The translations under genes were made by a program, and so were the position numbers. Shown here one piece after another: positions 25,716-59,497 of a DNA stretch of 64,000 bases. The notes below the pieces were generated by a model. It saw nothing but the letters and a program-made list of their open reading frames with translations. It was not told the origin of the DNA and did no database searches. The DNA is from Rhipicephalus microplus (taxonomy: Eukaryota > Arthropoda > Arachnida > Ixodida > Ixodidae): assembly GCF_043290135.1 (NCBI RefSeq), contig NC_134705.1, positions 99,016,239 through 99,080,238 on the forward strand, given 5' to 3'. Position 1 is the stretch's first letter. Each line of letters starts with the position of its first letter.

Positions 25716-25720
25716 GTCTA

Positions 25721-37470: not shown

Positions 37471-37702
37471 CACACCCGCGTCCACTGGGTTCCAACATGC
37501 AGCTCCGCAGCTGCCTTGTCCCAGTCACTGCTGCCTGGCGATTGTCTGCTCGACCATGGAACGAATACCAGCAAAAGGGCCCCAGTTCACAGTCTAGGTC
37601 ATCGTTCCTTCTTTGCTCAGCTGTGGGGCCAGTAGGCGTAGTTGTACCCTACATGGTTTAGCGGAAAGCAATGCACTAGAGAAGCATACTTACATAAAGA
37701 GA
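37471..37702. other. Short spacer between LINE-C and LINE-S
   Basis: No gene or repeat recognised. Confidence 0.5.
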
Positions 37703-37730
37703 GGACACTCCCGTATAGCCCTGTGGCCCA
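37703..37730. repeat. 28-bp sequence matching the P-element subterminal region
   Basis: It begins GGACACTCCCGTA and ends GTGGCCCA, matching 46068-46095 (23 of 28 positions). It abuts the 3' end of LINE-S. It could be an old P-type terminus into which LINE-S inserted, or part of the LINE tail. Confidence 0.5.
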
Positions 37731-38051
37731 GAGAGAGCGAGAGAGATAGGTTTATTTACAGAAAGGCGGAGAGGTCAGCCTGAGCCATAGCTTGCACTAG
37801 CCTGCTACTCTACACTGGGGGAGGGGAAAGGGAAAAAGAAAGCATAATGGATGGCGATTGTGAGATAGAGAGGTGAGTATGTAGTATTCTCTTTAGCCGA
37901 GTCCAGTTGCTTATAGTCCAGTTGCTTCCAAAAAAGTTATAACCGCTCTTATGACAACAATTGCACTGTTGGTGTCTGGCCAAGGGCTGAGCATGGTCTC
38001 ATCAGTTAATGACCTACTGCAATATCGTTCAGGAGAAGAAATCAATGTTTA
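37731..38051 (-). other. LINE-S 3' UTR
   Basis: On the minus strand it carries AATAAA (37751-37756) before a CTCTCTC-rich end. It also holds an imperfect direct repeat, GTCCAGTTGCTT, at ~37902 and ~37917. Confidence 0.65.
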
Positions 38052-39607: not shown

Positions 39608-39923
39608 TGCCGCAGAGACTGCCTTCTACCAGGAGAACCAGCGCGACGCTATGCAAGCGTCTACAACTACCAGGAGAACCAGCGAGACGCTATGCAAGCG
39701 TCTACAACGTAGCGCACCTGCGCGCGCTGTAGCAACGCGAGTCATTGCTCCTCGTGCTTGGGCTCGCGACGGTGGCCTGATCGACGGGTTGTGAAAAAAG
39801 GTGTTCGAGAGAGACGCTAGTGTGGAACGCTTTAGCGGACTCAGTTATTTACCTATTTTTCTGGGCACAAGTTCGCCCTTTAATAAAGCTATTGTTTGTG
39901 TCACCCTCTTGCAATACGTGACA
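39608..39923 (+). repeat. gypsy-2 5' LTR
   Basis: 316 bp, TGCCGCAGAG...ACGTGACA, identical by eye to 44952-45267. ATAT at 39604-39607 is the target duplication. It contains a 41-bp tandem duplication (39627-39667, 39668-39708; one difference) and AATAAA (39882-39887). Confidence 0.98.
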
Positions 39924-39926
39924 TTC

Positions 39927-39943
39927 TGGTGGAGGTGCGGGGG
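39927..39943 (+). other. gypsy-2 primer binding site (tRNA-Ala type)
   Basis: TGGTGGAGGTGCGGGGG lies 3 nt after the LTR. It complements a tRNA-Ala 3' end of the CCCCGCATCTCCACCA form with one mismatch in 16. The tRNA identity is inferred from memory of insect tRNA-Ala. Confidence 0.65.
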
Positions 39944-39944
39944 T

Positions 39945-41345
39945 ATGATTGGAAGTCCCTCAGGCGCAAGAGAGCGGAGCCCCGACCCTCAACGACTGGA
40001 ACCTGGCGAATTGACTCCTGTACACCAGCGTTCGAGCCGTCGTCTTCGAGGAGACCCGCCTGAATTCGGACCGCTCACCACTGCTCCAGCAACGCAAGCA
40101 GCTTTTACAAACGACCCCACAACGATGGCCACCGCAGGTTCTACATCCGAGCTCATCGTGTCACCACCGTGCCTGCCTGAGCCCTTCCACGGTGACTCGC
40201 ACGAAGATGTAGAAGACTGGCTGGAACATTTCGAGCGAGTCGCAAGGACCAATGCCTGGGATGAGACAAGGAAACTTGGACGCGTGTACTTTGCGTTGCA
40301 GGATTCAGCGAAGGTGTGGTTCGAAAATCACGAAGCGGTGATAACAACATGGGAAGATTTTCGACAACACTTGCTCACTGCGTATGCCAGCACCGACCGC
40401 CGAGAGAAGGCAGAGAACGCTCTCCAGTCCAGGAGTCAACGCACGAATGAGAGTGTCAGCATGTATGTCGAAGACATGTGCCGGCTCTTCAAACGCGCTG
40501 ATCCGAACATGACGGAAGAGAAGAAACTGCGCCACCTAATGCGTGGAGTCAAGCAGGACTTGTTTGCTGGGTTAGTTCGCAATCCACCACGCACGGTTGC
40601 CGAGTTCCGCACCGAAGCAACAACCATAGAGAAGGCGCTACAGCAGCGTGCCCGTCATTACAACCGAGACGCCAGTAGCGCACCAGTGGACGTCCTATCG
40701 GCAGGCCAAAGTAACAACAGTGAAACGCTAAGAGAACTGGTGCGATCCATTGTAAGGGAAGAGATTCAGAAGTTGATGCAGCCACAAGTGATGCCAACAG
40801 TCTCGACCCTCGCCGCCGTCATTCGTGACGAAGTCCGGCACGCCATCCTTCAGCCGGAACCTGAGCCGCAACCTGTTCGACTGGAACAACCACTGCAGAC
40901 ACGTCGCATGCCAACGTACGCGGACGCTCTACGCCAGCCTGCCGTGCACAATGCTTCTTTCGTAGCCCCCAGTACACGCCCGTCGGCTTCGCATGGCTCG
41001 CCCTTTCTCGGAGAGCTGAGACCACGAAAAAGCGACGTGTGGCGCACACCCGACTGGACGCCGCTTTGCTTTCATTGCGGAGAGGCTGGACATCTTTACA
41101 GAACGTGCCCATACCGGAGGGCCGGCCTGCGGGGGTTTTCTGTGAACGCACCATGCCCGCGTAATGGTGAAAGACCCATGGAGATAGAAGATTACCTGTC
41201 AAGGCAGCAACTCCCATCTGCTAGTTTTCAGCACCAGCCAAGGTCACCGGCGCCGAAACGTTACCGATCACCGAGCCCCCGGCGTCCAAGTTCCCCATTC
41301 TCAGGTCCACCAAGACGTTCAACGAGCCCGCGGCAGGAAAACTAA
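39945..41345 (+). CDS. gag: gypsy-2 gag
   Basis: 466 codons from the first ATG after the PBS, uninterrupted. The capsid-like part contains EDVEDWLEHFERVAR and WFENHEAVI, a segment shared with gypsy-3 and gypsy-4. One CCHC knuckle, CFHCGEAGHLYRTC, lies at residues ~374-387. The C terminus is Arg/Ser/Pro-rich, ending PRRSTSPRQEN. It packages element RNA. The pol frame (-1) is open from 41225, overlapping the gag end by ~120 nt, so pol is probably made by a -1 frameshift. The last codons GAA AAC before TAA (41343-41345) form an A-run where slippage is plausible. Some upstream in-frame sequence lies in the LTR, so the ATG at 39945 is preferred. Confidence 0.93.
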   Translation: MIGSPSGARERSPDPQRLEPGELTPVHQRSSRRLRGDPPEFGPLTTAPATQAAFTNDPTTMATAGSTSELIVSPPCLPEPFHGDSHEDVEDWLEHFERVARTNAWDETRKLGRVYFALQDSAKVWFENHEAVITTWEDFRQHLLTAYASTDRREKAENALQSRSQRTNESVSMYVEDMCRLFKRADPNMTEEKKLRHLMRGVKQDLFAGLVRNPPRTVAEFRTEATTIEKALQQRARHYNRDASSAPVDVLSAGQSNNSETLRELVRSIVREEIQKLMQPQVMPTVSTLAAVIRDEVRHAILQPEPEPQPVRLEQPLQTRRMPTYADALRQPAVHNASFVAPSTRPSASHGSPFLGELRPRKSDVWRTPDWTPLCFHCGEAGHLYRTCPYRRAGLRGFSVNAPCPRNGERPMEIEDYLSRQQLPSASFQHQPRSPAPKRYRSPSPRRPSSPFSGPPRRSTSPRQEN

Positions 41346-44300
41346 GTCCAGCGACCTGTGGAGGCAAGGCCGCTGTTGTTCGACAAGGCGAAGATCCTCC
41401 GTCAAGACCCGAGGGTAGCAGCGACAGGCAGAAAAGAACGACTAAGATAAGTAAGGAATCAATTTCTTCGGACTTGCGCGTTACGGTGGACGAGCGGGAA
41501 TTGAGCGTTTTAGTCGATACCGGTGCGGATTATTCAGTCGTCAGCTACGCGTTCGCGAGGGATCTCAAGAAAGTTTTGACGCCGTGGAGTGGTCCACAAA
41601 TAAGAACGGCTGGGGACCACAGGATAACACCAGTGGGAAGATGTACCGCGAGAATAGGAATTCAGGGTGCTACTTACGTGGCTGAGTTTATTGTGCTTCC
41701 GGAATGCTCAAGGGACGTAATTCTCGGGATGGATTTCTTGCTAGCGAACGGTGCCATAATCAACCTACAAAATTCTAGCGTTTCCTTCTCGACGAAGCTG
41801 GCCATAGACGAGAAGGAGGTAGAGAGCACTGCATTGCGGGTTATCGACGAAGACATAACCGTGCCACCACGATGCAGCGTGCTGGTTGGCGTCAGAAATG
41901 ACACATTTGCCGATTCCGAAGGCATAGCGGATAGCAACGTCGAGCTGCTACTAAAGAAAGGTATTTGTGTAGCCCGGGGCATCATTCAATTACGTGATGG
42001 GTGCGCCAGTGTGTTGCTCACAAACTTCGGAAATGCAATACAGCATGTTGCAAAAGACACTGCCATTGCCTTTCTGCACAGCTTTACTGCAGCGACAGAT
42101 TTGTGTGGCCTCACGTCAGCACCACCTGCTTCGGGAAGTACGGATGATGTCGGAGCTGCGGTTTCAATAAATAGAAGTCTATCATCAGGCGAAAGGCAAA
42201 TCATACAGGACCTCATAAGAGACTTCTCAGAGTGTTTCTCCACCTCGTCAAAAGTACGTCGCACGCAGATCGTTAAACACCGAATAATAACTGACGAGCA
42301 AACAAGACCTGTTCATCAAAACCCGTACAGAGTTTCACCCAAAGAACGAGAGGTCATAAAGGGTCAAGTGCAAGAGATGCTGGAGGATGATGTCATCCAA
42401 CCATCCAACAGTCCGTGGGCATCGCCAGTAGTGCTTGTGAGGAAAAAGGACAACACGTTGAGATTCTGCGTTGACTACCGGAAACTGAACAGCGTGACCA
42501 AGCGCGACGTATACCCCTTGCCACGTATCGATGATACATTAGATCGCCTACGGCATGCCAGATATTTCTCGTCATTAGATTTAAAAAGCGGGTATTGGCA
42601 AATTGAAGTGGATGAAAGAGACCGCGAAAAGACGGCTTTCGTAACTCCGGACGGCTTGTACGAATTTAAAGCACTCCCATTCGGCCTTTGTTGTGCGCCG
42701 GCGACATTCCAGCGCATGATGGACAGTGTTCTATCGGGTCTCAAATGGCAGTCATGTTTAGTATACTTGGACGATGTTGTGGTATTTTCTGCAACCTTTG
42801 AACAGCATATAGAACGACTACGTTCAGTGCTTCACGCCATCCAGTCGGCCGGCTTGACTATTAAACCGGAAAAGTGTCAGTTTGGATATGAAAAGCTTCG
42901 TTTTCTCGGTCATGTGATCAGCGCTGAAGGTGTTGGCCCGGATCCGGACAAAACTGCGGCCGTTGCGCGATTCCCCAAGCCGAGAGACAAGAAGGAGGTG
43001 CGTCGATTTCTGGGCTTGTGCGCTTACTACAGACGATTTATAGAAAATTTCTCGAAAATTGCTGAACCTCTGACCAGACTCACAAAAGAGGAAGAATCAT
43101 TCGTTTGGCATAAGGAACAAGAGAGAGCTTTCGAGGAACTAAAGAACCGTTTACAAGCCCCACCGATCCTCGCACATTTTGATGAAACTGCGGACACGGA
43201 AGTCCATACAGACGCAAGTAATCTTGGTCTCGGCGCGGTATTAGCTCAATGGCAAAATGGAGAAGAGAAAGTCATAGCCTATGCCAGTCGCACCCTGTCA
43301 AAAGCTGAAAAGAACTATTCTGCAACGGAAAAAGAGTGCTTGGCAGTTATATGGGCGATTAGCAAGTTCAGGCCATATCTCTACGGCAGGCCGTTCCGCG
43401 CCGTCAGCGACCACCATTCACTTTGCTGGCTGGCGAGCTTAAAAGACCCGTCGGGACGACTTGCGAGATGGAGCCTCAGGCTCCAAGAATACGATATTAC
43501 AGTTGTATATAGGTCGGGAAGAAAACACAGCGATGCTGATTGCTTATCACGCTCGCCACTGGACTCTACCTCTTCGGAAGAGGACGACTTTCCGTTCCTT
43601 TGTGTTGTGAAGGCTTCAGATATCGCCGAGCAGCAACGATCCGACACAGAACTGCTCCCATTGATAAAATTCCTCGAAGGGCACGACTCCCAAGTTCCAC
43701 GTGTATTTAGGAGAACATTATCGTCGTTCTGCCTCCGTGATAATGTACTCTACAAAAGGAACTTCAGAAGCAACAAAGAAAAGTTCTTACTCGTTGTGCC
43801 GCAAGTCATGAGACGTGAAATATTACACGCTTGCCATGATGAACCGTGCTCGGGTCACTTAGGTGTCAGCCGGACATTCGCCAGAATTCATCTGAAATAT
43901 TACTGGCCCAAGCTGTTAGCATCGGTACAGCATTATGTGAAGACATGCCGCGAATGTCAAAGGCGCAAAACACCACCTCTGAAAACTGCCGGCCTGCTCC
44001 AGCCCATAGACCCACCTGAGACTCCTTTTCAGCAAATTGGAATGGATCTTCTCGGGCCGTTTCCAATGTCATCCTCAGGAAAGAGGTGGATTATTGTCGC
44101 AACCGACTATTTAACGCGGTACGCAGAAACTGGCTGCCTGGAACGAGGAACGGCTGCGGAAGTTGCCAAGTTCTTCGTTCACAACATAGTTCTGCGACAT
44201 GGCGCCCCGATGGTAGTTATCACCGATCGCGGAACAGCATTCACATCGGAGTTGATGCAGTGCCTGATGAATATGACTAATACCACTCATAGAAAAAGTA

Positions 44301-44884
44301 CTGCGTATCATCCCCAAACGAACGGGTTGACGGAACGCCTAAACCGCACCATAGCGGATATGTTGTCGATGTACGTGGACATAGAGCATAAGACGTGGGA
44401 CGAAATCCTACCTTATGCAACGTTCGCCTACAATACGGCAGTACAGGAGACCACCCGCATTCCTCCATTTGAGCTGGTCTATGGCCGTATGGTGACTACA
44501 ACACTCGACGCTATGCTCCCTGTCGATAACGACAATTATGAGCCATCTGACGTTGAAGAATTCCTACAAAGAGCTGAAGAAGCGCGCCAACTAGCGCGAC
44601 ATCGAATACGTCAACAACAATGTAGGGACGCGAGCTACTACAACCTGCGCCGCAGAGAAGTCAAATATCAGCCAGGCGATCAAGTGTGGGTGTGGACACC
44701 AATACGCCACCGTGGGCTGTCAGAGAAACTTCTTCGACGCTACTTTGGTCCATATAAGGTCATCCGCCAACTCAGTGACATAACTTATGAAGTTATTCCT
44801 GAAGGACAAGAGCGCTCAAGACGTCAAAACCATGCAGAGGTCGTACATGTAGCCCGCATGAAGCCCTACTTCGAGAGATGCTGA
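41225..44884 (+). CDS. pol: gypsy-2 pol: protease, RT, RNase H, integrase
   Basis: Open -1 frame (first ATG-like codon at 41474; real entry probably by frameshift). Protease: LVDTGADYSVVS (~41510). RT: FCVDYRKLNSVTKRDVYPLP, SLDLKSGYWQIEV, LPFGLCCAPATFQRMM and YLDD (~42760). RNase H: VHTDASNLGLGAVLA (~43203) and SDHHSLCWL. Integrase: HHCC zinc domain (HACHDEPCSGHLG...CRECQRRK, ~43830-43970), catalytic motifs GMDLLGPFP (~44041), VITDRGTAFTS (~44217) and YHPQTNGLTERLNR (~44308), and a GPY/F module LLRRYFGPYKV (~44732). All catalytic motifs are present and no stop was seen over >1,100 codons. With identical LTRs this is the best candidate for a recently active copy. Confidence 0.95.
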   Translation, partial: FSAPAKVTGAETLPITEPPASKFPILRSTKTFNEPAAGKLSPATCGGKAAVVRQGEDPPSRPEGSSDRQKRTTKISKESISSDLRVTVDERELSVLVDTGADYSVVSYAFARDLKKVLTPWSGPQIRTAGDHRITPVGRCTARIGIQGATYVAEFIVLPECSRDVILGMDFLLANGAIINLQNSSVSFSTKLAIDEKEVESTALRVIDEDITVPPRCSVLVGVRNDTFADSEGIADSNVELLLKKGICVARGIIQLRDGCASVLLTNFGNAIQHVAKDTAIAFLHSFTAATDLCGLTSAPPASGSTDDVGAAVSINRSLSSGERQIIQDLIRDFSECFSTSSKVRRTQIVKHRIITDEQTRPVHQNPYRVSPKEREVIKGQVQEMLEDDVIQPSNSPWASPVVLVRKKDNTLRFCVDYRKLNSVTKRDVYPLPRIDDTLDRLRHARYFSSLDLKSGYWQIEVDERDREKTAFVTPDGLYEFKALPFGLCCAPATFQRMMDSVLSGLKWQSCLVYLDDVVVFSATFEQHIERLRSVLHAIQSAGLTIKPEKCQFGYEKLRFLGHVISAEGVGPDPDKTAAVARFPKPRDKKEVRRFLGLCAYYRRFIENFSKIAEPLTRLTKEEESFVWHKEQERAFEELKNRLQAPPILAHFDETADTEVHTDASNLGLGAVLAQWQNGEEKVIAYASRTLSKAEKNYSATEKECLAVIWAISKFRPYLYGRPFRAVSDHHSLCWLASLKDPSGRLARWSLRLQEYDITVVYRSGRKHSDADCLSRSPLDSTSSEEDDFPFLCVVKASDIAEQQRSDTELLPLIKFLEGHDSQVPRVFRRTLSSFCLRDNVLYKRNFRSNKEKFLLVVPQVMRREILHACHDEPCSGHLGVSRTFARIHLKYYWPKLLASVQHYVKTCRECQRRKTPPLKTAGLLQPIDPPETPFQQIGMDLLGPFPMSSSGKRWIIVATDYLTRYAETGCLERGTAAEVAKFFVHNIVLRHGAPMVVITDRGTAFTSELMQCLMNMTNTTHRKSTAYHPQTNGLTERLNRTIADMLSMYVDIEHKTWDEILPYATFAYNTAVQETTRIPPFELVYGRMVTTTLDAMLPVDNDNYEPSDVEEFLQRAEEARQLARHRIRQQQCRDASYYNLRRREVKYQPGDQVWVWTPIRHRGLSEKLLRRYFGPYKVIRQLSDITYEVIPEGQERSRRQNHAEVVHVARMKPYFERC

Positions 44885-44937
44885 AGCATTCCCCCTTGCG
44901 TACTTCCCCCAACCGCGCATCGGGACGATGCGTATTT

Positions 44938-44951
44938 CGGAGGGGGAGTAA
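44938..44951 (+). other. gypsy-2 polypurine tract
   Basis: The GGAGGGGGAGTAA-like purine tract immediately precedes the 3' LTR. Confidence 0.85.
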
Positions 44952-45267
44952 TGCCGCAGAGACTGCCTTCTACCAGGAGAACCAGCGCGACGCTATGCAA
45001 GCGTCTACAACTACCAGGAGAACCAGCGAGACGCTATGCAAGCGTCTACAACGTAGCGCACCTGCGCGCGCTGTAGCAACGCGAGTCATTGCTCCTCGTG
45101 CTTGGGCTCGCGACGGTGGCCTGATCGACGGGTTGTGAAAAAAGGTGTTCGAGAGAGACGCTAGTGTGGAACGCTTTAGCGGACTCAGTTATTTACCTAT
45201 TTTTCTGGGCACAAGTTCGCCCTTTAATAAAGCTATTGTTTGTGTCACCCTCTTGCAATACGTGACA
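44952..45267 (+). repeat. gypsy-2 3' LTR
   Basis: 316 bp, identical by eye to the 5' LTR. ATAT (45268-45271) follows as the second target duplicate. AATAAA at 45226-45231. Confidence 0.98.
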
Positions 45268-45271
45268 ATAT

Positions 45272-46040
45272 TTCGTCAGCGTATGCACTGATCTTCACCG
45301 TGCTGGGAAGTTGTGCTGCTAGGCCGATCATTGTGACATTGAATAGAATCGGGCTGAGAAATCCTCCTTGGGGAACACCACGATGAACCTTATATCGATC
45401 GGTGTCTCCGTTATTTGACGTCATGTAAATGATGCGGTCCCTAAGGTAGCTAAACTCCCAGCATACAGTCATCCACCGATGTCGAAATCTTCCAGTGCGT
45501 CAAGAATCGCATAATGTAGCACATTATCGTAGGCACCCGTAATGTCTAGAAAGACCGCCACCAGTAGTCTGCGTCGGCTTCTTTCCTCTTCAACGCTGGT
45601 GATCAAGTCAACCACACCGTCAATGGCAGATTGACCTCTTCTGAAGCTGTTCATAAAGGCAGGAAAGGAGTTGTTGCTCTCTAGAAGCCACTGTAATCTT
45701 GACAGAACCATTCTTTCCATTACTTTCCCGACACAGCTGGCTAAGGCGAGTGGTCTGTAGGAGGAAAGTGCATAAGGACACTTCCCCGACTTAAGCAATG
45801 CAATAATGCGACTGATTTTCCAATTACCTGAGACTTCTCCTGACTGCCATGAGGTGTTATAATGAGATAACAGGATATGTACTGCTTCTGTACCAAGATG
45901 GTTGAGTGCAGCATACGTGATTCCGTCAGGTCCCGGTGCCGATGAGCGTCGAAAGGCAGAAATTGCAGCGTCAAGCTCATGCATTGTAAAACGCACATCA
46001 AGGCGCTCGTCAGACGATGGAGGCGCAATGGTAGTAAGAG
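45272..46040 (-). pseudogene. LINE-S ORF2 middle part: RT fingers and palm
   Basis: Minus-strand reading from the P-element side: TTIAPPSSDERLDVRFT, then SSAPGPDGITYAAL (~45920), LLKSGKCPYALSSYRPLAL (~45770), VAVFLDITGAYDNV (~45550; catalytic Asp), a 1-nt frame change near 45470, GVPQGGFLSPILF (~45370) and finally YADE at ~45275, where YADD is expected. The P element begins directly upstream (46041) and gypsy-2 directly downstream (45267). It would copy LINE RNA at the nicked target; this copy is split and mutated. Confidence 0.9.
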
Positions 46041-46076
46041 CATAGAGAAATAAAAAAGGTGAAGAGTGGACACTCC
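46041..46076 (+). repeat. P-element terminal inverted repeat, left
   Basis: It starts CATAGAGAAA and ends GGACACTCC at 46068-46076, pairing with 52875-52908 with a 2-bp length difference. It is the transposase-side 3' terminus. Confidence 0.88.
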
Positions 46077-46095
46077 CGTAGACCCCAGCGGCCCA

Positions 46096-47753
46096 ATCGA
46101 CTCTAGCACACCTAGTGGTTGATGAGAGCAAGTGGCTTGCGCTTCCGGTTTCGGTTTCACTGGCGCAACTTTTGAATTACTTTGCATAACCGACGTTTGG
46201 CTATGTCGTAAGTTCATAATTTCAGACCACTATTCATCGCCCAAATGGATAGTTTTTGTAGGTCGTTTTGATTTAGCGATTCCCTGTTTTGTTTTGTTCA
46301 GTGGTTCGTGCGAATCGGTCGTGACGTAATTTTTATTTTGATTAAGTTATAAAAAAAAGAGATGCAGGTAATGATAATTCACTATCGTTTTATTCATCGC
46401 GCTTGTGTTTTTCTTTTGGAACAAGTGATCAATGTATATATCAGTCAAAGAAACAGAGCATCCGCAATGTTTTATTCAAAGGCAAGGTAGAGTATGAGAA
46501 TATAAAAAGCACAATATGACAAAGGTAGACAACAAATGCATCTCGCCTTACAAATAAATTGTAACAAATATTGTAACAAATACATAGAGAACACAGACAA
46601 CGCACACATCGCTAGAGTTGGCAGAAGCCGAGAAACTGGTGAAGTATGACACACCGGGCCAGTGGGTAACTAAGGATCTATGGCAAAAACATAGCGCACA
46701 ATGCTGATGAAGAAGGAAGAAGTGACATATACACAGCAATGAAGTCGCGAATCACGCCTGGGCTTAACTGAAATAATGCATAGAAAAAAAGAGCGCACAG
46801 AAACCACACGACACAATATAACAGAAAGGCAAAGGTGCAGTGTGCTGGCTGTGCTTAAGAACAGCTAGTCCAAAATGAAAAAAAGCAGACTTGATGCCTG
46901 CTTGTCCTCAGAAAGGTAGGGCTTTGCAGCTTGCTCACTACGTGAAAGACAAACTTTATGCTACAACACTGGCAGGTCTTGTGGCTTTTGTTATGCGTCG
47001 CCTTCATCAAAAACTTAAGATCCCAAGTGATTTGCGTTTGGGTGTTGCTGTGACGCTTGCGAGCTAAAATAGATTGTAGTCATCACTTTATCCAGAATTG
47101 TGGACTTTAAGTGGTGCTACGAGAGCGGTATTACAGGGCTAATAAATAGCAGAAGGAAACCACTTTGGCTCATTATTTTTCACAAAGGCTCTACATCGTA
47201 CGTTATCACTCACAAGCTATATGAAAATAAAATGGCAGCGTCCGCAGCCCCATCAAACACTACAAGTTTGGGTATTCTTTTGAAAATTTTGATGGGCAAG
47301 ATGAGGAGGTTGATGAGAAGCTAAAATACGAAAAGCGTGATAACATGAACCGTGCCCACTTCATACTGTGTTCCTTACCCGCTCGAAGACATTTCAACAA
47401 GCGGTTTTGTTATCGATATATTACTTGAGCTGGAGAGATAAAGCATACACAGTGACCAAGCGACCCACAGTAAAGTGTACAGTTCGCCCGTATTTGCTAC
47501 AAAAAATACAGACAGGATGCCCAACATTCTTTTTAAGGTTATGCAAATCACTTCGAGCGAATACACAGTGTTTGTACTCCTCATAGCGGGTAACCAAAAC
47601 AATGAATGCAACGAAGGAGTGGTTAGTCCAGTTGAACTGAATATAAGCATATAAGACCATAATGAAGTCTGCTGTAACGAAGTAATAACATAACAAAGCT
47701 ATTGCAGGATTCGGCTCAACTCCAATACTTTAGTGTAAACCCGCCGCTAATTG
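46096..47753. other. P-element 3' non-coding region
   Basis: 1.7 kb between the transposase stop and the left terminus. Minus-strand AATAAA occurs at ~46470. Open frames here are short, without domains. This may hold long 3' UTR or fragments of older repeats. Confidence 0.5.
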
Positions 47754-50700
47754 CTAACCTTTGAACTTGTCAAGCTGCATGCCCGAGATTGAAGACTGGA
47801 ACCTAACCCTGTCTAAGTTTCGGTTCACAAAACGCACATGCCAACATAAACGAACCCGGCAAAACATTTTCAGAAACTTAGCGCGACACCCAGCAGAGCA
47901 GAAATGAAAATCGCCAACACTTGACAGATGGTGATACAAAACATCGCACACTTTCAGGTGATGTGCAGTGGCCTCAATTATGGCAAGAAAGCGAGATTCA
48001 AGTTGTTGTACGTATGCAAAAGCTGCTTCTGATGGCACAGTGAGATTCCCAAAAAGTTTGCTGGGGACGTGGTATGCTTTGAGCATTGTGAAATACTGGT
48101 GGGTACCCTTAAGCGTCTCACTGTCGTCTTTCAGTAACTGTGGGCAACTGCAACCGTCACATGCATTCCGAAGGAAGTGTTTGATGAGAAAACCAGCTAC
48201 ATAATATGCAGCGGAGTCATCGATAATATGGGAGTGAATGTTTGTCGCAAGTTCAGAGAGATCGTCTAGAGCGGGAAAGTCGTCAGGCTGTGGCTGTGCA
48301 CACTCCTCATTATCCACAAGAGACGCACTGGTGAGGGAGAATGGCGACAGCTGTTCCTGGAGGAGGTCACATTCATCATCCTCGACATTTCCGTATTCTG
48401 ACAGCTTGAAGAGTTTTCTTATGCAGATGTGCTTCAGGCCACAAATAAATTGTGCTACATTGGGGTTGGTGTTGCAACCCTGTTTTTGCCTAATGTGGCC
48501 AAATATGTTCTCCAGAGGATCCTGTTGAAGCCTGCGTGTTAACAGGTATTCAAAATTGTAATTTTTGGAGAGGTCGTCCCATAGTTGACAAATTGCCTGA
48601 ATTGTAATTTGCCAACCTACGATGGTTTGTGGTTGACGTCTGCCAACAAACTGCCATGATGCAATCCAGGGAAGCTGGCCTCGGAGGAAGTCAATCAGCT
48701 CTGAATCATTTTTCATGATTGCATGCCGCAGCTTTTGCGAAGTTCTTTTTTTACTCGAGCTGTTCAAGGCATCGAAAATCCTGTCCATACGATCACAAAA
48801 TTGAGCTGTAGTGATGGCCGAGGCAGGCAGCACCTTCGCATACACCATTGCCGTGATAGCAATCGAAACTGATGCACTGAAGACCTGAGTTGCTCTGCTG
48901 ACCTTCATATTAGAAAAAGGTTTCTGATGAACGTGCCGTTCAGTCAACTTTGGAGCCAATCGCAACCGCAACTCATGTGAGGATTGGTAAAGGCTTACAA
49001 TGTGCGACCAGTTAACGATGTCATCCCCAATGTATAACTTGTGTGCTTGGACATTATTGCGCGTTGTTTTAATTAAATGCGGAACATCAAAAATGTAATA
49101 TACCCGCTCACCATTAACTTCAAAAAAAGGCTTTGCTACAGTCACTTTTAGTTGGTTAGCGAGACTTACATTTGAACTGCCCTGGTCACAAATGACTGCT
49201 TTCACTGCAATATTAATGCTCCTAAGCTCCAAAATGAGTGACACCAGCAAGTTATGCATAACAGATGATGGTGTTGATGTGTGCCCTATAGTAAAAGCAA
49301 CCGGTTGAACCCACTTTCTCGAAACACCAACAAGAAGAAAAACCAGTGCTCGATCAGCGATGGTTGAAGTGCGATGAGTGCCATCATCTGTAAAACCCTG
49401 GACAACGTCTCTTGAAGCATCATAGTACAAATTCTTTTTGAGTGCTATTTCGTCGAAAACTAAAGCGCACACTCGGTCCCGTTCATTCCAAGCTTGAGTA
49501 TTTGTTGCAATGGAAGAAAGGATTCCTGGAATTATGCCTGGAGTCATCTTTACATTAGCTAGCCACCTCCTTAATGAACGCCGGGAGGGCAAAGAAAAAT
49601 ACGGAGCCAGAAATCGGTATGCTCGCGGACCTCGGAAGTTTAAGTGAAGAGCGAATTTCTTGAACCACACGGGAAACCGCTTGCCCTTGCATTTGGGCCT
49701 CAAGCGAACATGTGCAGAAAGAAGTTTAAAAACCTCCTCGGTGACGTGCGGTCGGATAACTTCAAGGGCCTTCGTAGTCGATGACGGTGCTTGGTGAGGC
49801 TGTCTCTGCAGTCTTTTGATAGTTTTCCGCTGTGCTGCTACTTTGGCTTGCAGATGTTTAATGGTTTGCTTGTACTTCATTGATGGAGACATTGTCGCTG
49901 GCACACAGGAACGCACTGCAATAAACAAAAAAATTGATGTAAAAGCGAAGAACAACTAATCCCATACGAGCACTTTCCTCGCTCTTTCAGACCCAAGGTC
50001 TGAAACTTTCTGTGGTACAAAGTTTTCGATTCCACTACCTAAAAACAAACCATTCACAATGTTGACAATGCACAAAAAAAATGAAAATCACTGAGAGCCC
50101 ACCCTTACATTTTGTAAGTGCACACGTAGTGTCCTTTTGAGGATAGTTTCCTCAGAATGTCCTAAACATAAAATAGCACATTAAAAACTGCTGCAATAAA
50201 AGCATAGTCACCATTTTCTCTAAGGCACTCAGGCGTGGAGCTGTTGGCGGAGACGTCTTCTGGAGGGTCTTGTGAAGCTTGTTCAGTGCCTCGGACAATG
50301 CTGTCGGAACAATCTTGCGAGCGGCCTGCGGAAGTCTCTATATCAATCCACTCTGGTGTTGAAGTGAACATACAACTTACCGGCCACACAAGTTCCTTTT
50401 GTGACAGCTGAACGACTGGTTAAGGTTTTCTCCGGCAAGACGAAATCATCAGAAATTCTTTCACCAGCTACAAGGGAGCTGCCACCTGCAGAGGTTTGGT
50501 CAACAGTCAATTTGGGTAAAAAAAAAAAGAAATCGCGACACTGAACGCACCCTGTTCATCGGGGCACCTCAATGTGTGGGAGCCGCTTTCTGAAGCCTCT
50601 ACCGCAGGTCCTGAAGAGATGAAATTACGACAATGTGTCAGTAAGAGGCTTATAATAACACAAACTGAAGCTCATCCGCACCTTGCAGTGCAGCTTCTGC

Positions 50701-51619
50701 AGCCATGTCACAGTCACTACTTGAAGCGACGCTCAGAGAACCTGCATATATGTGCAGTTGGTACAAGTTACAAAGCTTGTAGCATGGGGAAGCTTAAACA
50801 GCTCTTTCAAACGCATAAATTGGTCGAACGTGGAAAAAAAGAGACGGCACCAACTAGGAAACAAGTAATTTGTGATTTTTGGAATTATCAACAGTGGCAG
50901 CTTTCACTGATGAAAGGTATACGTACATGTGCACTCAGGCTTGAAGATAACGTGAAATAGCCCTTTAAAGTCTTTCAAAACAAGTTGCGCAGGTCCAGAG
51001 CATCAAAAAATGACAGAAATGTAAAGCTGCTGTTAGGAAGGTAATAGCCCACAATTCACAGAACTTAAGACTTTCCAAGTGTTACTTCTGTAGTGAGGTT
51101 TCTCTATCGGCTACAGAGATCTTCACGGTTAACTGTCGCCACTGATTCAATACAAGTGGCTGCTATTGCACATATTTGAGTTTCAGTCAATCACTTACAT
51201 GGTGCAGCTGGTTGCACACTGGGAACAGCCATTCTTGTAAGCCTTGTGTGCCCAGGGTCCATGAAACTTTGAGCAGTAAAATGGTCGCTACAAACCCTGT
51301 ACGTTGCGTACAATAGGCTGGCCGGCTTACTCAGGAGATCATCGCGTCCAGCATACTGCATCCATGCTTTCATCCTGCATTGGCAATGAACTATCAGCTG
51401 AAAGGGGAAGTGCTTGAATAGTGATTTTTTATTGTTACCCTCACTTAGCAAGTACGAACAGTAAGCCTACAGACATGCAAACCATACAAAAGCTTTAACA
51501 CACCTGCCGTCCCGTGGTACGCGGAAGAAACTCGTCCCAGGCTTCTTGTGGGTTCTGCCATTGTTGAAGCACCACGATACACAGCAGTAGCTGCCGTAGC
51601 TTGGACCGCCGGACGGCAT
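47754..51619 (-). CDS. P-element transposase, THAP9-like (five exons, 890 aa)
   Basis: My gene model on the minus strand is exon 1 51619-51504, exon 2 51374-51199, exon 3 50485-50381, exon 4 50325-50212 and exon 5 49915-47754 (stop). All introns are GT-AG, phases agree, and the total is 2,673 nt (891 codons). Exons 1-2 encode a THAP zinc finger: YCCVSWCFNNG, FFRVPRDG, MKAWMQYAGR, CSDHFTAQSF and MAVPSVQP, i.e. the C2CH ligands, the invariant Trp and the AVPx motif. A coiled coil starts exon 5. The RNase H-like core has VFDEI (Asp ~325), CDQGSSN (Asp ~414), FDVPHLIK and QDPLENIFG (Glu ~639), matching the P/THAP9 DDE arrangement. The length is near human THAP9. It would bind the ends and catalyse cut-and-paste transposition. 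The exon 4 donor (GTGACT) is the weakest link. No coding defect seen. Confidence 0.88.
50486..51198 (-). other. P transposase intron 2
   Basis: 713 bp, donor GTAAGT, acceptor CTCTGCAG. A plus-strand open frame of 128 codons lies inside (50574-50960) but has no recognisable domain. Confidence 0.7.
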
Positions 51620-52874
51620 GGCGTCAGCGCGGTCTGAAAATGTTAGTAAGTGGATGCTTCGCTGTCAAATTACAAAAAAGATATGTGCACGTCATAAGTG
51701 TACCAGCAAACCCCTTTGAATGATTAGCTAATCGATGCACAATACAAAACCAGTGATACATCTCTGACCCATAAAACTCTGACTTACAAAGATATACGTC
51801 AAGACCACGAACAAAGATCTTCAGAAGTTTCCAGGCCGCTATCCCTTGTAATGCAATGGTATCGCGGCCTGGGAACATTAGAACACCTTCGTGCGTACGC
51901 AGTATCAGCAGTACATTGGGAAGAAAAATCGTAGTTGAAATTTGTGCGGTAAAATTATATTGGAAACGTCAAAAAAATTTGTGGGCAGCTTGCACTAGTG
52001 GCACAAGGCTAGCGAAGAAACGAAGATGATGGCCACTTGGCTAGTCCAGATTTGCCTCCGGCACACCAAGAATTATTCGTGTTCCGAGCCTTCGGGAAAT
52101 GCGTCGTGAAGCATGCGAGGCCCAACAAACGCTTCTCAATATTTTGCACCGAGCCTACGACCTAGCTGCCCAGCTATGCTCAGCGCACAGACGCTCGCGT
52201 CCGTGGCAGACGCAGCACGCGTCGCCTCGGCTTGACGCCGTGCCGCCTTTTCTATACTGCATACGTTGCACAATGTTCCCGTCTAACCGCCGCATAGAGC
52301 CACAAACTTTCTTTTTAGCGAACCTCCCAGTCCTTACAAGCTTCAGAAAAAGGTTACAACTGCGTGAATGACACGCCACGTAAGAAACAAACTCGCACAC
52401 ACGAAGCGCAACGTGTGTGTGTGCATCTTTCTATGTTTGTTGCATGGTGTCTTTTTCGCGCAGGCGTAACCGTTTTCTGAAAAAATGACCCAACAAGACC
52501 AACAACATGTCATTCAACAAGCTTCGCTTGAAAACGTGCCTCACCTGTTATCTCACGCTTGAAAACGCCGACGCAGCCGACGTTGACGAAAGCGACGAAA
52601 GCGTCTCGCTGTCAGTCATGCATGGGCTTGTCGCTGGATAGATGGTGTTTATGACAGTACGGCTGAAGAAAAATAATCGCGTAAGGTGTGTTGAATAAAT
52701 CGTTTTTATGTATAAAGAACATACCAAATTTGGGCGTGTAATTATTAATTTGTGAAAACAATTCTGTTGCATTGATTATAACTGTGTTTTTTTTTGCGCT
52801 TGCGCCCTCTGACGTGTGGTGGGAGCACTAGTTCGTTACGTAGTCGTGACGCACTTCCTGAGGCCAGGTTTCGC
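51620..52874. other. P-element 5' non-coding/promoter region
   Basis: 1.26 kb upstream of the transposase ATG. It includes a GC-rich stretch at 52090-52260 and GTGTGTGTGTGC at ~52411. I cannot point to a defined promoter motif. Confidence 0.4.
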
Positions 52875-52908
52875 GGAGTGTCCGCTCTTGTCTTCTTCTT
52901 TCTCTATG
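52875..52908 (-). repeat. P-element terminal inverted repeat, right
   Basis: The reverse complement begins CATAGAGAAA and ends GGACACTCC (plus-strand 52875-52883). It is the terminus on the transposase promoter side, followed by the GTAAGAG duplication. Confidence 0.88.
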
Positions 52909-52915
52909 GTAAGAG

Positions 52916-54000
52916 GCTCAATAGTGGCAAGACCATCAGTAGTGGTCACGATGAGGCTACAGTAGTCGCTGGCTATCTCTACTTCAGTCCGCCCTTGATG
53001 CAGAGCAACAGCTTGAAACGGTTGATGTTGTTGGGGAGCTGCCTGCAGACCTCGTACCACCCACCAGATCTTAGATAGAGTTTGCCTAAGTTTCAGAGAT
53101 CGACAGAATTTTTTCAACGCTGCCTGTCAATCTTATCAAGATACCGAAGAACGTGTTGAGCTCGACGACAGGCGGAAAGGGCTGAAGGCAACTTTGTTCG
53201 TCTGTATCGGCGTTCTGCACGGCGACGGATTGCATGAAGGGCGTCGTATTGGGAGTCAACTGCTGATCTCTGCAATGGTGGGTTAACCTGTTTGGTTGTG
53301 ACACGCAGTGAAGAAGCATTGATGTTCTCTACCTCGAATGGATCAACCGTGTGCTCACAACCGGACTTGACAGATGCCTTGAAAAGTTTCCAGTCGGTTC
53401 GACGGATGTAGCGTGTGTGTGTGCGGCGCAACCACCTGAACTGAACATATGTTGGAAGGTGGTCACTGCCGCGAGTGTCCAAATCAGTGCACCAACATGC
53501 GGAAGACAGAAGGCTTCTGGAAACGAAACAGAGGTCGAGGCAGCTGCTGTAGGGCGTGCCACGAATAAATGTAGGTGATCCGTCGTTGAGCACGCTTAGT
53601 CCATTGTTGCGTATAAAATTGGCCAAATTCCTTCCACGATAATTCATTGTAGTGCTACCCCAGAGAGGATGATGTGCATTACAATCGCCAATCATAATGT
53701 GTGGTCTTGGTGCTGCTTGAAGAATGGTCGCCAGGTAGAAGCAGTCTATCTGTGCGCTTGGGCGTATGTATCCTCCTATAACTGAAAATGTCCGCTTTCT
53801 ATGTGTTCTATAGTCAGGCTCACGTAATAATTGCTGGTATGCGACGTCACTGCATGTCTCAAGAACGTCAAATCACGGCATATACAAACGAGAACTTCGC
53901 TCGTGCGTGGATCAATGCGGGACCAAATCTGGATATATCCAGATATACGAAAAGTTGAACCATATTCGGTTCACATATGACGATAACAGGCAATTAATAT
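52916..54000 (-). pseudogene. LINE-S ORF2 5' part: endonuclease body and linker
   Basis: Read on the minus strand from gypsy-3: LPVIVICEPN, RISGY, VLVCICRDLTF, then SVIGGYIRPSAQIDC (~53770) and MIGDCNAHHPLWGS (~53690), where GDFN is usual but Phe is Cys, then NNGLSVLNDGSPTFIRG, CLDLCFVS and SDHLPTYVQF (catalytic SDH), all AP-endonuclease motifs. The linker runs through ALHAIRRRAERRYRR and KIWWVVRGLQ to ~52916, where the P element interrupts. Two or more frame changes occur in 53700-54000. Confidence 0.85.
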
Positions 54001-54186
54001 TGTCACGTTACAACGTAACTGTAAGCTGCGGATAATGGCACACAAGGACGTCAAACTGATTCGAAGAACGGCTGTATGACTATTGTTTTTCTCTGCACGC
54101 GCATCTTTGTCCTCTTCTGAACAGCGGCACATACAAGCACGCCAGCATCTGTGTAAATAATACTTGTAGAACTTGTACTAGTGGCA
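54001..54186 (-). repeat. gypsy-3 3' LTR
   Basis: 186 bp (TGTCACGTTA...AGTGGCA in plus orientation), 5 differences from 59312-59497. The ATAT duplication precedes it at 53997-54000. Confidence 0.97.
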
Positions 54187-54200
54187 TTACCCCCTTCACA
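54187..54200 (-). other. gypsy-3 polypurine tract
   Basis: On the minus strand GTGAAGGGGGTAA directly precedes the 3' LTR. Confidence 0.8.
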
Positions 54201-54316
54201 AAGGACATCGTCCCGATGTCATAACATAATTGCCAGATGAAAAGACGTACGATAAGCAGTACACAAGGGGGTGTTCACAATCACTGTAAGTCTACTCAAG
54301 GGAGTGTGACGAATAG

Positions 54317-57300
54317 TCAGTGTTGGTAAAATGGTTTCATCCTCGAAACATGGACGACGTGTCGCTGCTGTGAACGGCGAGATTGACGAGCCATGTCCTC
54401 GTCAAGAACCTCGTAGTTCACTTCGCTGAGACGACGGAGAACTCTATAGGGACCAAAATAGCGGCGTAACAACTTTTCCGACCGGCCCCGTTGTCGAATA
54501 GGAGTCCACAACCATACTCGTTCTCCGGGTTGGTAAGAGACATCGCGACGACGAGCTTTGTACCGCAGCGAGTCGATGCATTGTTGCTTATGGATTCATT
54601 CGACTGCAAGCTTACGAGCCGCGTCTGCCAGTCTGATAAATTCGTTCGTCTTGACACTAATCTGGTGTCTGTCTGGTAGAAGCATGGCATCCAGCATTGT
54701 AGTGACCTCCCTGCCATGAAGCAACCGGAATGGTGTGAATCCAGTTGTTTCTTGCACAGCGGTGTTGTAAGCGAACGTGACGTAAGGGAGGATGTCATCC
54801 CAGCTTTTGTGGTCTTGTTCAACGTACATGGATAGCATGTCGGCGATCATCTTGTTTAGTCACTCTGTAAGACCGTTGCTTTGTGGGTGGTATGCAGTAG
54901 TTTTTCGATGTACTGTGCCGCTAAGCTGCATGACGTCTTGTATTATCCGGACGGTAAAAACTGTGCCACGATCAGTTATGACAACTGCTGGTGCTCCATG
55001 TCGGAGGACGATGTTTTCCATACAAACGTGGGCAGTCTCAATGGCGGTGCCACGTTGTAATGCCTTCGTTTCGCAGTAGCGCGTCATGTAATCAGTAGCG
55101 ACTACAATCCAGCGGTTGCCGTCACGAGACTTGGGAAAAGGTCCGAGTAGATCCATGCCAATTTGTTGGAACGGTTGTGTCGGAGGAGCGACGGGCTTCA
55201 AGAAGCCGGCTGGGCGCTGATGTGGAGCTTTACGGCGCTGGCACTTGTGACACGTCTTCACGTAATGCTTCACGTCTCGACTGAGCCTAGGCCAGTAGTA
55301 GTGTTGGCGAATCCGGGCCAAGGTACGTGCGAATCCCAAGTGGCCTGAGGAAGGCTCATCGTGACAGGCGGACAAGACATCGGCACGTAACGCTGGCGGG
55401 ACAACAAGCAGGTACTCAGTCGCGTAAGGGTCGAAGTTTTTTTTATAGAGGATATTTCTGCGGACGCAGAACGATGATGACGAGCGGGCAAATGCTGGTG
55501 GTGGATGCGGCGTACGGCCTTCGAGATATTCGATGAATTGTCGAAGCTCGGAATCGTTCTTCTGCCGTTCAGCCAAGTCGGATACACTAACGGCGCAGAA
55601 AAAACGGCCGTCGAGATCGTGATCACCTGACGCTGTCTTAAGAGGAGCTCGGGAAAGGCAGTCCGCGTCACTATGCTTCCGGCCAGACTTGTACACGACT
55701 GTCAAATCGAACTCCTGAAGGCGTAAGCTCCACCTGACCAGACGTCCGGAAGGGTCTTTAAGGTTCGCCAACCAGCAGAGCGCATGACGATCGGTAACAA
55801 CTATGAACGGGCGACCATACAGGTACGATCAGAATTTAGCTATTGCCCAGACAACAGCTAGGCGCTCCTTTTAAGTTGTGTAATTCGCCTCCGCAGATGA
55901 TAAAATGCGACTCGCGTAAGCAATAGGGCGTTCGACGCCGCCTTGCCACTGGACGAGAACTGCACCAAGGCCGATGTTACTAGCGTCTGTGTGTAGTTCA
56001 GTGTCGACATATTCGTCGTAGTGTCCGAGTAAGGGCTCAGACTGGAGACGCTGCTGGAGCTTGGAGAAAGCGCGTGTTTGCTCAAGGCCCCACACGAAGG
56101 GAACGTCGTCTTTTGTCAGACAAGTGAGGGGTTCGGCAATGTTTGCGAAATTTTGCCCAAAGCATCTGTAGTATGCGCAGAGGCCTAAAAATCGACGCAC
56201 ATCACGTTTGTTGGTAAGTGGTGGAAAATCTGCGACAGCCAATGTTTTGTCTGGGTCAGGCCGAATACCATGAGGGCTAACAAGGTGACCGAGGAACTTT
56301 AATTCGTTGTAACCAAAATGACATTTTTCTGCTTTCAGTGATAGGCCTGCCGTGCGAATTGCAGCAAACACAGATCTAAGTCGCTGCAAATTCTGCTCAA
56401 ACGTTTGGGAGAAGACAACGACGTCGTCTAAGTAAACAAGGTATGCTTCCCACTTGAGACCGGAGAGCACTGTATCCATCATCCTCTGGAATGTCGCAGA
56501 GGCAGAACACAGACCGAAGGGCAGCACCTTGAATTCGTACAGACCATCAGGCGTTATGAATGCTGTTTTCTCTCGGTCGCGTTCATCAACTTCGATCTGC
56601 CAGTAGCCACTGCGTAAATTCATTGAGGAGAAGTAGCGGGCGCGTCGGAGGTGGTCTAGTGAGTCGTCGATGCGCGGAAGCGGATAAACGACTTTCTTTG
56701 TGACTTTGTTGAGTTTGCGGTAATCAACGCAAAATCGGAGAGAGCCATCCTTCTTTTTTACTAGTACGACGGGGGACGACCATGGACTGTTCCAGGGTTG
56801 GATTACGCCATCTTCGAGCATCTGCTTCACTTGAGAACGTATAGCCTCTTGTTCCTTTTGTGATACTCGGTAGGCGTGCTGACGTATGGGTCGCTCAGCA
56901 TGGTCAGTGACAATGCGGTGCTTTACGGCTGGCGTTTGTTTTATCTTGAATGTAGACGCGAAACAGTCGCTAAACATGTGGAGGATACAGCATATTTGCT
57001 CTTTCTGCGCACATGACAGGTTCGGATTGACATCGACTGCATCGGCTACCACGGTGTCACTTTCAACGGCTGTAGAAATTGGGGCTATCGTCGCACACGC
57101 TTCATCGTCAATGGATTCGAAATGAGCGATAGTTGTTCGCTTGGCCAAATGTTGGTATGCTCCACTAAATTTGGTTACCAACAACTCAGTCATCCCACGT
57201 TCAAATTGAATTATTCCGCGGGCAACGCCGATTTGCTGAGACAAGAGCACCGAAAGGTTGGCTTCAGCGATACCACTACTGTCATGGTATATGTCGCCCT

Positions 57301-57790
57301 GTACTGTAACGAACATACTGGTGCGTGGCGGAAGTGTGACGGTGTCGTCGACAATGCGAAGCGCAGTCTTCTGCGGATTGGTATCTCTAGGCTTCAGGCC
57401 ATCATCGTCAGCAAACGTTACGATGCAGTCTCGAAGATTTATAACAGCGCCATGCTCACGAAGGAAATCCATGCCAAGGATAACTTTCCGGGAGCGTTCG
57501 GGAAGCACAACGAAAGAAGCAATGAACGTCGACTCACAGATTTGCAGCCTTGCGGTGCATCTCCCGATTGGTGTCAAGAGATGACCACTGGCGGTCCGAA
57601 GGTTTGGTCCATGCCCCCAAGGAGTCGTGACTTTCCTGAGTTCAGCCACAAGTTCAGCGCTTATAACTGAGTAGTCGGCGCCGGTGTCGACCAGAGCAGT
57701 CACTGGATGGTCGTCAACACGAACGGCAATGCCAACAGAAACGGGTTCGTCAGCGATGTGAGGTGTCGGCTGAAAGGAATCGTCGAAGGT
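54317..57790 (-). pseudogene. pol: gypsy-3 pol: protease, RT, RNase H, integrase (stops)
   Basis: Protease LVDTGADYSVIS (~57695). RT has FCVDYRKLNKVTKKVVYPLP, SMNLRSGYWQIEV, LPFGLCSASATFQRMM and YLDDVVVF (~56430). RNase H HTDASNIGLGAVLVQW (~55965) is cut by TAA at ~55872 and TGA at ~55832. Integrase carries CHDEPSSGHLG...CHKCQRRK, GMDLLGPFP (~55150), VITDRGTVFT (~54975) and YHPQSNGLTE followed by TGA (~54859). Another TGA lies at ~54595. The end is LLRRYFGPYRV (GPY/F, ~54460) to the stop near 54317. It is otherwise one frame, -1 relative to gag as in gypsy-2. Four in-frame stops inactivate it. Confidence 0.92.
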
Positions 57791-57861
57791 CGGTGGATGG
57801 GTCGGAGGAGGCTGTTTTGATGATAGCTTAACAGCGGTCCCACCCCCGGAGGCCGCTGATT

Positions 57862-59285
57862 CTAGTTTTTCCGGCGTGGACTTGGGGACCTAGCGGATCG
57901 TCCCGCAACAACATCGGCGAAAGTGGAGTATTGATTTGAAGACGTACAGCGTCGAGGAGACGGAGAGCGTGATTGGCGGCGCTGAAGATTCGGAGACGGT
58001 AGACTTGCCAAGTATTCTGCGATGGCGCGGGGTCGTTCAATGTCCCTGGGCCGACGAGCGTCTGGCCGAAATCCAGGTAGGCCCATATGTCTGTACGAGC
58101 ACTCCCGGTACAATTGACCTGGCTCACCACAGTGGCAGCATAGTGGCCGATTGTCGGAAGCGCGCCACACGCTAGATTTCCGCAAATTAGGTCGCAGATT
58201 CTCATAGTGGGCCCGAGAAGTACTGCGGTATCTGCAGGCAAGTCGGTCGTTGGTTTTCATAGCGTGGCCCGCCCGAGAAGTGCTGTGGTGTCTGCAGGCT
58301 AGTCGGTCGGGCGGAAATAGCTGGCTGCCGGTGCAGGAGTACGTACAGCTTCCGCATACGTTAGCAGAGAAGCTTCGGTTGAAGGTGGCGCTAATGGTCG
58401 TACTAGCTGCCGCACCTATTCACGGACAACGTCTGTCAGAGCAGCCACTTGAGGCTGTGAAGGCACTGCGTGAAGCTTTTGAAGCTCGTCACGTACAATG
58501 CTACGGACTAGCTCAGTAAGTTCTCTCACGCTCGTGACATCGGGTGTTACCAAGGGTGCTGACAGACATGCAAGGTTGTCGGACCGTTCATACTGCGAAG
58601 ACCGCTGTCTTAGCATTCGCTCCATGGTCGTAGCTTCACGGAGGAATTCTGTCACGGTAGCTGGTGGGTTTCGCACAAGTCCTGCAAACAGCTGCTCTTT
58701 GACACCCCGCATCAGAGTGCGTACCTTTTTGTCTTCCGTCACTGCAGAATCCGCTCGACAGAACAGACGAGACATTTCCTCAACGAACATGGCCACGCTT
58801 TCATTAGGTCTTTGATTGCGAGAATTGAGGAGACGTTCGGCTTGTTCTTTCCGGTCGGCGCTACCATACGTGTTCCGCAGCTGAGTGCAAAACACCGGCC
58901 AGGTTGTCAGGGTGGCCTCGTGATTCTCGAACGAAATACGCGCCGAATCCTCCAGGTAAAAATAAACATACCGCAGTTTCCGGTGCTCATCCCACTCGTT
59001 GGCGACGGCGACTTGATCGTATTGGTCCAGCCAGTCTTCAACGTCTTCGTAAGGCTCCCCATGGAAGGGCTTTGGCGTTCGAGAGGCTGGTAGCCATGGT
59101 GCTGGTGGAGTCGCGGTCGGTTCAGTCTGGCTTGCAGTTGTCGCATATGCCATGGTTCTGGAGCGTTCCAGACGAGGGCTGAATTGGGGTGGTAGGCCTA
59201 GTTGCCGCCGACTGCGTCGAAGGTTGGCTGTTTCTAGTAAGGCATCAATGTTGGGACCGAGATCTTCCTCGTGGGAACAGTGCAT
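57862..59285 (-). pseudogene. gag: gypsy-3 gag (frameshifted)
   Basis: It starts at 59285 just after the PBS. EDVEDWLDQYDQVAV, FENHEATLTTW and FAGLVRNPPATVTEF correspond to gypsy-2 gag. The first frame stops at ~58416. The reading then resumes in another frame from ~58260 with one CCHC knuckle, CCHCGEPGQLYREC (the conserved His is replaced by Gln), and an Arg/Ser-rich end SPSPRRKN at 57862. The broken interval holds a 39-bp imperfect tandem duplication (58211-58249 and 58271-58309). Confidence 0.9.
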
Positions 59286-59292
59286 AGACTAT

Positions 59293-59310
59293 TACCCCGC
59301 ACCTTCACCA
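59293..59310 (-). other. gypsy-3 primer binding site
   Basis: On the minus strand TGGTGAAGGTGCGGGG starts 1 nt after the 5' LTR. It is the same class as gypsy-2 (tRNA-Ala-like). Confidence 0.65.
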
Positions 59311-59311
59311 G

Positions 59312-59497
59312 TGTCACGTTACAACGTAACTGTAAGCTGCAGATAATGGCACACAAGGACGTCAAACTGATTCGAACAACGGCTGTATGACTATTGTTTT
59401 TCTCTGCACGCGCATCTTTGTCCTCTTCTGAACAGCGGCACATACAAGCATGCCAGCCTCTGTGTAAATAATACTTGTAGAACTTGCACTAGTGGCA
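59312..59497 (-). repeat. gypsy-3 5' LTR
   Basis: 186 bp with ATAT at 59498-59501 as target duplicate. Five differences from the partner LTR in 186 bp indicate an older insertion than gypsy-1 or gypsy-2. Confidence 0.97.

What the first reader, a model, noticed from the sequence alone, without database searches (positions are those of the whole stretch)
46041..52908. Apparently complete P element with an intact THAP-domain transposase in a tick
Sequence shows inverted termini, a 7-8 bp flanking repeat and a five-exon gene whose introns are all GT-AG and whose phases sum exactly to 891 codons. The protein has a THAP finger and D/D/E-type motifs as in Drosophila P and vertebrate THAP9. P elements are best known from dipterans; a structurally whole one in a tick, sitting in a LINE, is unusual and could be active or recently active.
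Basis: partly seen in the sequence, partly recalled or inferred. Interest (0 to 1): 0.88.

Follow-up and report, generated by a model that had tools for sequence, protein, structure and literature searches.

The report
Complete P element in cattle tick
This 6.9-kb stretch of DNA, likely from the cattle tick, is a structurally complete P element, the fruit-fly type of cut-and-paste jumping gene, and its predicted transposase keeps every listed catalytic and GTP-contact residue, so it could still be able to jump; close relatives of its protein are annotated in other ticks, so it is a good new member of a known kind.

The parts
46041..52908 (-). complete P-superfamily transposon, 6,868 bp, gene on the minus strand
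   Evidence: TIRs, TSD, gene and restored LINE frame
46041..46076 (+). terminal inverted repeat at the 3' end of the gene; starts CATAGAGAAA
   Evidence: 29 identities, 5 mismatches, 2-nt gap with the other end; score reached by 1 of 5000 random pairs
52875..52908 (-). terminal inverted repeat at the 5' end of the gene; starts CATAGAGAAA on the minus strand
46034..46040 (.). target-site duplication GTAAGAG, copy 1
52909..52915 (.). target-site duplication GTAAGAG, copy 2
51504..51619 (-). exon 1 (116 nt): start codon, first half of the THAP domain (C13, C17, P35)
   Evidence: match to P0001, GT donor
51199..51374 (-). exon 2 (176 nt): second half of THAP (W43, C67, H70, F71, P90; Pfam PF05485 8.2e-10)
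50682..50741 (-). exon 3 (60 nt, phase 1/1, skippable)
   Evidence: absent from annotated products P0079, P0082, P0095 of other copies
50551..50610 (-). exon 4 (60 nt, phase 1/1, skippable)
   Evidence: absent from P0019, P0082 and P0095
50381..50485 (-). exon 5 (105 nt, phase 1/1, skippable)
   Evidence: absent from P0019
50212..50325 (-). exon 6 (114 nt, phase 1/1, skippable)
   Evidence: absent from P0083
47754..49915 (-). exon 7 (2162 nt incl. stop): long predicted helix at the place of the coiled coil (223-248), HTH (PF12017), split RNase H (PF21787, PF21789) with GTP-binding insertion (PF21788), C-terminal region
   Evidence: D365, D454, E679 and 8 GTP contacts conserved
46041..47753 (-). 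3' untranslated part; AATAAA at 46476, 46394, 46337
47263..47325 (-). stretch of the 3' untranslated part whose translation is the C-terminus of the truncated copy LOC142776736 (P0094/P0095), which suggests that this copy is internally deleted
   Evidence: 20 of 21 residues identical, E 1e-10
53117..53872 (-). host LINE, endonuclease part
   Evidence: PF14529 5.8e-21
45472..46040 (-). host LINE, reverse transcriptase part, in one frame with 52916-53126 once the element and one TSD are left out
   Evidence: PF00078 1.6e-11; 260-aa frame across the junction
37672..37731 (+). probable decayed remnant of a second end of the same family
   Evidence: 34 nt at 85%, E 6e-4; alignment extended to the tip with gaps

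Best explanation
The 6,868 bp at 46041-52908 are a structurally complete P-superfamily DNA transposon, with inverted ends, a 7-bp target duplication and a seven-exon transposase gene model free of internal stops, and it is predicted to move by GTP-dependent cut-and-paste transposition. Likely mechanism, inferred from Drosophila P: the N-terminal THAP finger binds sites near both ends, a coiled coil brings monomers together, GTP held by the insertion domain positions the 3'-terminal G of each end in the D365/D454/E679 active site, both ends are cut and joined to staggered target positions, and repair leaves the flanking duplication. Exons 3-6 each add or remove a piece of a disordered linker between the THAP finger and the catalytic core, so alternative splicing would change the reach of the DNA-binding domain rather than the enzyme (inferred). 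Shown: anatomy, intact frame, conserved residues, multicopy family in R. microplus, truncated THAP-bearing products. Inferred: enzyme activity, recent mobility, repressor function of the truncated copies.
Against: The TSD is 7 bp, not the 8 bp of Drosophila P and zebrafish Pdre2. The TIRs are imperfect (29 of 34 paired columns plus a 2-nt gap), where Drosophila P has perfect 31-bp ends. TIR plus TSD of this size turns up in 7 of 100 simulated windows. No convincing subterminal inverted repeat was recognised. No DNA of a second full-length element could be compared; LOC142769029 may be the same locus in another haplotype. Splice sites rest on annotated relatives, not on reads seen here.
Confidence: 0.92

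Rival explanations
1. A domesticated THAP9-like host gene that happens to be flanked by repeats.
For: Intact long frame; human THAP9 is enzymatically active yet lacks TIRs and internally deleted copies (PMC7776569, passages).
Against: TIRs and TSD are present; the insertion splits a LINE frame; nine gene ids in one species that group by species, not by orthology across ticks.
Confidence: 0.02
2. A recently dead element: the frame is intact only because the insertion is young, but ends or protein no longer work.
For: 8 of the 9 annotated R. microplus gene ids have truncated products, as in a decaying family; imperfect TIRs.
Against: 3 of 3 catalytic residues, 8 of 8 GTP contacts and the THAP ligands kept; no stop or frameshift in 930 codons. 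My third search took only 225-716 aa proteins and so favoured truncated copies.
Confidence: 0.3
3. The element is mobile but belongs with the Galileo branch of the P superfamily (7-bp TSD) rather than with P proper.
For: 7-bp TSD as in Galileo (PMC2775673, passages).
Against: Ends start CATA, as in zebrafish Pdre2 (CATACCTGTCAAC, PMC10983969, passage); TIRs are about 35 nt, not the long ends of Galileo. No Galileo transposase was in my trees, so this is not excluded.
Confidence: 0.15

Closest known systems
Rhipicephalus microplus LOC142769029 (P0001), annotated only as uncharacterized protein
   Same: 928 of 930 residues, same seven-exon product
   Different: window has E125 and D657 where P0001 has Q and G; whether it is the same locus or another copy cannot be told
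Drosophila melanogaster P element (transposase 6p5a/6pe2)
   Different: 6.9 kb against 2.9 kb; longer protein with a spliced linker; imperfect about 35-nt TIRs; 7-bp TSD
Zebrafish Pdre2 / zfTHAP9
   Same: TIR starts CATA; zfTHAP9 has an about 100-residue disordered insertion between THAP and dimerization domains, which its authors found in none of the other homologs they compared (PMC10983969, passage). The tick protein has a 113-residue low-confidence linker at the same place
   Different: 13-bp TIR and 8-bp TSD; splicing of the zebrafish linker not looked at
Ixodes scapularis LOC115328397, LOC120847938, LOC121836326 proteins
   Same: P transposases with all five domains in the same tick clade; their last 720 residues are 97.5-99.9% identical among the three loci, again a multicopy family
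   Different: 62-63% identical to the window over 736 columns; much longer repetitive linker
Drosophila KP repressor
   Same: The LOC142776736 product keeps THAP and about 266 residues and then runs into the element's 3' sequence, as an internally deleted copy would
   Different: repressor function untested; deletion inferred from protein models, not from that copy's DNA

Membership tests
P element superfamily | P-type transposase: HTH, split RNase H with DDE, GTP-binding insertion domain | tested here: met
P element superfamily | N-terminal THAP zinc finger | tested here: met
P element superfamily | terminal inverted repeats; a CA/CAT start is recalled as typical | tested here: met
   36/34 nt, imperfect, CATAGAGAAA
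P element superfamily | target-site duplication of 7 bp (Galileo) or 8 bp (P, Pdre2) | tested here: met
   7 bp GTAAGAG; LINE frame restored
P element proper (Drosophila P, Pdre2) | 8-bp target-site duplication | tested here: not met
   7 bp exact; 8 only with one mismatch. Filed at superfamily level for this reason
P element superfamily | subterminal inverted repeats and THAP-binding sites | tested here: inconclusive
   only a weak 14-nt pair 46466-46479/52691-52704; no binding data
P element superfamily | multiple copies including internally deleted ones | tested here: met
   nine annotated gene ids in R. microplus; LOC142776736 joins residue 266 to 3' untranslated sequence. Seen as proteins only
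Galileo/1360 branch of the superfamily | transposase grouping with Galileo or 1360; 7-bp TSD | tested here: inconclusive
   TSD length fits; no Galileo or 1360 transposase was compared
Domesticated THAP9 gene | single-copy, no TIR/TSD, orthologous across species | tested here: not met
Active transposon | excision and integration by the encoded protein | not testable with these tools
   needs an assay

The most novel reading that the evidence does not exclude
A live P-element family in the cattle tick: a full-length source element makes transposases of different linker length by splicing four in-frame cassette exons, while several THAP-bearing, internally deleted or truncated copies act as KP-like repressors. 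That would be a P-type transposase/repressor system, with the makings of P-M-like hybrid dysgenesis, outside insects.
Probability: 0.25. Interest if true: 0.7.

Novelty: new member of a known kind. Interest (0 to 1): 0.42.

Why it matters
It is a complete, assay-ready P element from a chelicerate, with its ends and target site defined to the base. If active it would test whether GTP-dependent P transposition and KP-type repression are general in arthropods, and it could serve as a tick-native transformation vector for the laboratory. Its linker, built from four skippable exons at the place where zebrafish THAP9 has a disordered insertion, offers a natural test of what that linker does. It also shows that some tick genes annotated as uncharacterized proteins are transposases.

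Tried and rejected
Domesticated gene: rejected (see rivals). P0043 (HPB51_008492) first looked like an internal deletion joining QGSSN to the 3' part; the DNA shows a GTAAGT donor at the left break (49169) and a CATCAG acceptor at the right one (near 46704), so it is a splice or gene-model fusion and I do not count it as a deletion. LOC142776736 has no AG just before the 3' piece (47325) and its one junction residue (Q) is not given by simply joining the window's bases; I read it as a deletion with a changed or added base, but its own DNA was not seen. BLASTP had placed its end at residue 292; that tail is misaligned, and the transposase part ends at 266. Searching IMG/VR and GTDB contigs for relatives gave none. 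The subterminal repeat search gave only short pairs that I judged, without a test, to be within chance. The wider tree (28 rows: 26 hand-chosen of the 98 proteins found, the window and 6p5a) gives a tick clade of 12 rows at 100/100, two of whose rows (lgn) name no organism; the Drosophila P branch is long and meets the Amphiura row, so I draw no order of descent or horizontal transfer from it. The copy tree used 16 rows; of the tick hits P0016, P0022, P0027, P0043, P0094 and others were left out, and P0004 was cut. Paper searches: P element with Rhipicephalus microplus gave 3 papers, none on a tick P element by title (listing); P element, THAP9 and tick none; P elements, ticks, horizontal transfer, arthropods and transposase none; three of P transposon, P elements, tick, chelicerate none; THAP domain with Rhipicephalus two, a flea genome and ants (listing); listings showed none by title. 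This is no proof that nothing is in print.

Full report
What is there. The window holds, at 46041-52908, a 6,868-bp element whose ends are inverted copies of each other. The first 10 nt (CATAGAGAAA) are identical and the pairing runs over 36/34 nt with 29 identities, 5 mismatches and a 2-nt gap; 1 of 5000 random pairs of 40-nt pieces from the window scored as high. Directly outside both ends stands GTAAGAG. A scan of the whole window for perfect 10-nt inverted pairs, 1-20 kb apart and flanked by perfect 7-nt direct repeats, returns this pair alone; 7 of 100 simulated windows held any such pair, so the ends gain their weight from what follows.

Insertion site. The DNA on the two sides encodes parts of one non-LTR retrotransposon on the minus strand: an endonuclease domain at 53117-53872 and a reverse transcriptase at 45472-46176. 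With the element and one 7-bp repeat left out, a 260-aa reading frame runs through the junction. The LINE itself is decayed: endonuclease and reverse-transcriptase parts are in different frames. An 8-bp duplication with one mismatch would leave the same empty site (6,868 + 7 = 6,867 + 8); the exact repeat is 7 bp.

The gene. Guided by the annotated R. microplus protein P0001, the minus strand gives seven exons with GT-AG introns and 930 codons plus stop, no internal stop, 928 of 930 residues identical to P0001. From this the window is likely R. microplus. Exons 3, 4, 5 and 6 (60, 60, 105, 114 nt) start and end in phase 1, so each can be skipped in frame. P0094 and P0095 are two annotated isoforms of one locus and differ in which exons they use, which points to alternative splicing; I saw no reads. 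The skippable exons encode residues 98-210, within the stretch 93-220 that the AlphaFold2 model leaves at pLDDT under 50. Zebrafish THAP9 has an about 100-residue disordered insertion at the same place, proposed there to be a linker for reaching distant repeats (PMC10983969, passage).

A family, not a host gene. None of the eight listed products reaches E679, and 7 of 8 loci carry a precomputed THAP hit. The last search took only proteins of 225-716 aa, so it favoured truncated copies, and clusters at 90% identity can hide full-length ones (P0001 stands for 90 sequences, which may include isoforms). In a tree of 16 rows all ten R. microplus rows, the window included, form one clade (98/99) apart from R. 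sanguineus and Dermacentor copies, so copies likely multiplied within the R. microplus lineage. Ixodes scapularis likewise has three full-length loci with 97.5-99.9% identical C-terminal 720 residues.

A KP-like copy. The product of LOC142776736 (P0094, P0095) follows the transposase to VIRP (residue 266) and then ends in FSFSSTSSSRPSKFSKEYPNL, 20 of 21 identical to a translation of 47325-47263, inside this element's 3' untranslated part. No AG acceptor stands before that piece in the window's DNA, so an internal deletion is the likelier reading, though the single junction residue is not explained by a clean join. Such a product keeps THAP and the long helix at the coiled-coil place and loses HTH and catalytic domain. 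Small non-autonomous Drosophila P elements often encode repressors such as the 207-aa KP protein (PMC7776569, passages). Repression is not shown here.

Comparison. Ends starting CATA are shared with zebrafish Pdre2 (PMC10983969, passage); a 7-bp duplication is shared with Galileo (PMC2775673, passages). I therefore file it in the P superfamily and leave open which branch. Novelty is limited: Petersen et al. 2019 (PMC6327564, passages) name the P superfamily among those present in all investigated species, and Ixodes scapularis is one of them. What is added here is a complete element with defined ends and target site, its cassette-exon linker, and the set of truncated copies in the cattle tick. 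Activity is open.

Noticed in passing
39605-45267 (+): An LTR-retrotransposon-like insertion in the same LINE, with gag- and pol-like frames (by eye, no domain test) and 319-bp terminal repeats that differ at 1 position: apparently a young insertion beside the P element.
   Followed up: partly
21426-25717 (+): Another LTR-retrotransposon-like unit: 163-bp direct repeats 99.4% identical around frames of 405 and 941 aa. Domains were not tested.
   Followed up: no
54001-59500 (-): A third LTR-retrotransposon-like unit with 189-bp repeats 96.8% identical; part of it (54681-56872) is 65% identical at DNA level to 42326-44517.
   Followed up: no
37672-37731: Probable decayed second copy of this P family's end, next to a GA-rich simple repeat.
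   Followed up: partly
7092, 8118, 10573, 12543, 16299 (about 240 bp each): Dispersed repeats of about 240 bp in both orientations, about 77-98% alike, perhaps a SINE or MITE.
   Followed up: no
P0043 (HPB51_008492), matching 49547-49170 and 46703-46653: An R. microplus gene model splices part of this P family's exon 7 and 3' part onto exons with a BAG domain; the rest of it does not match the window. Chimeric transcript or annotation artefact.
   Followed up: partly
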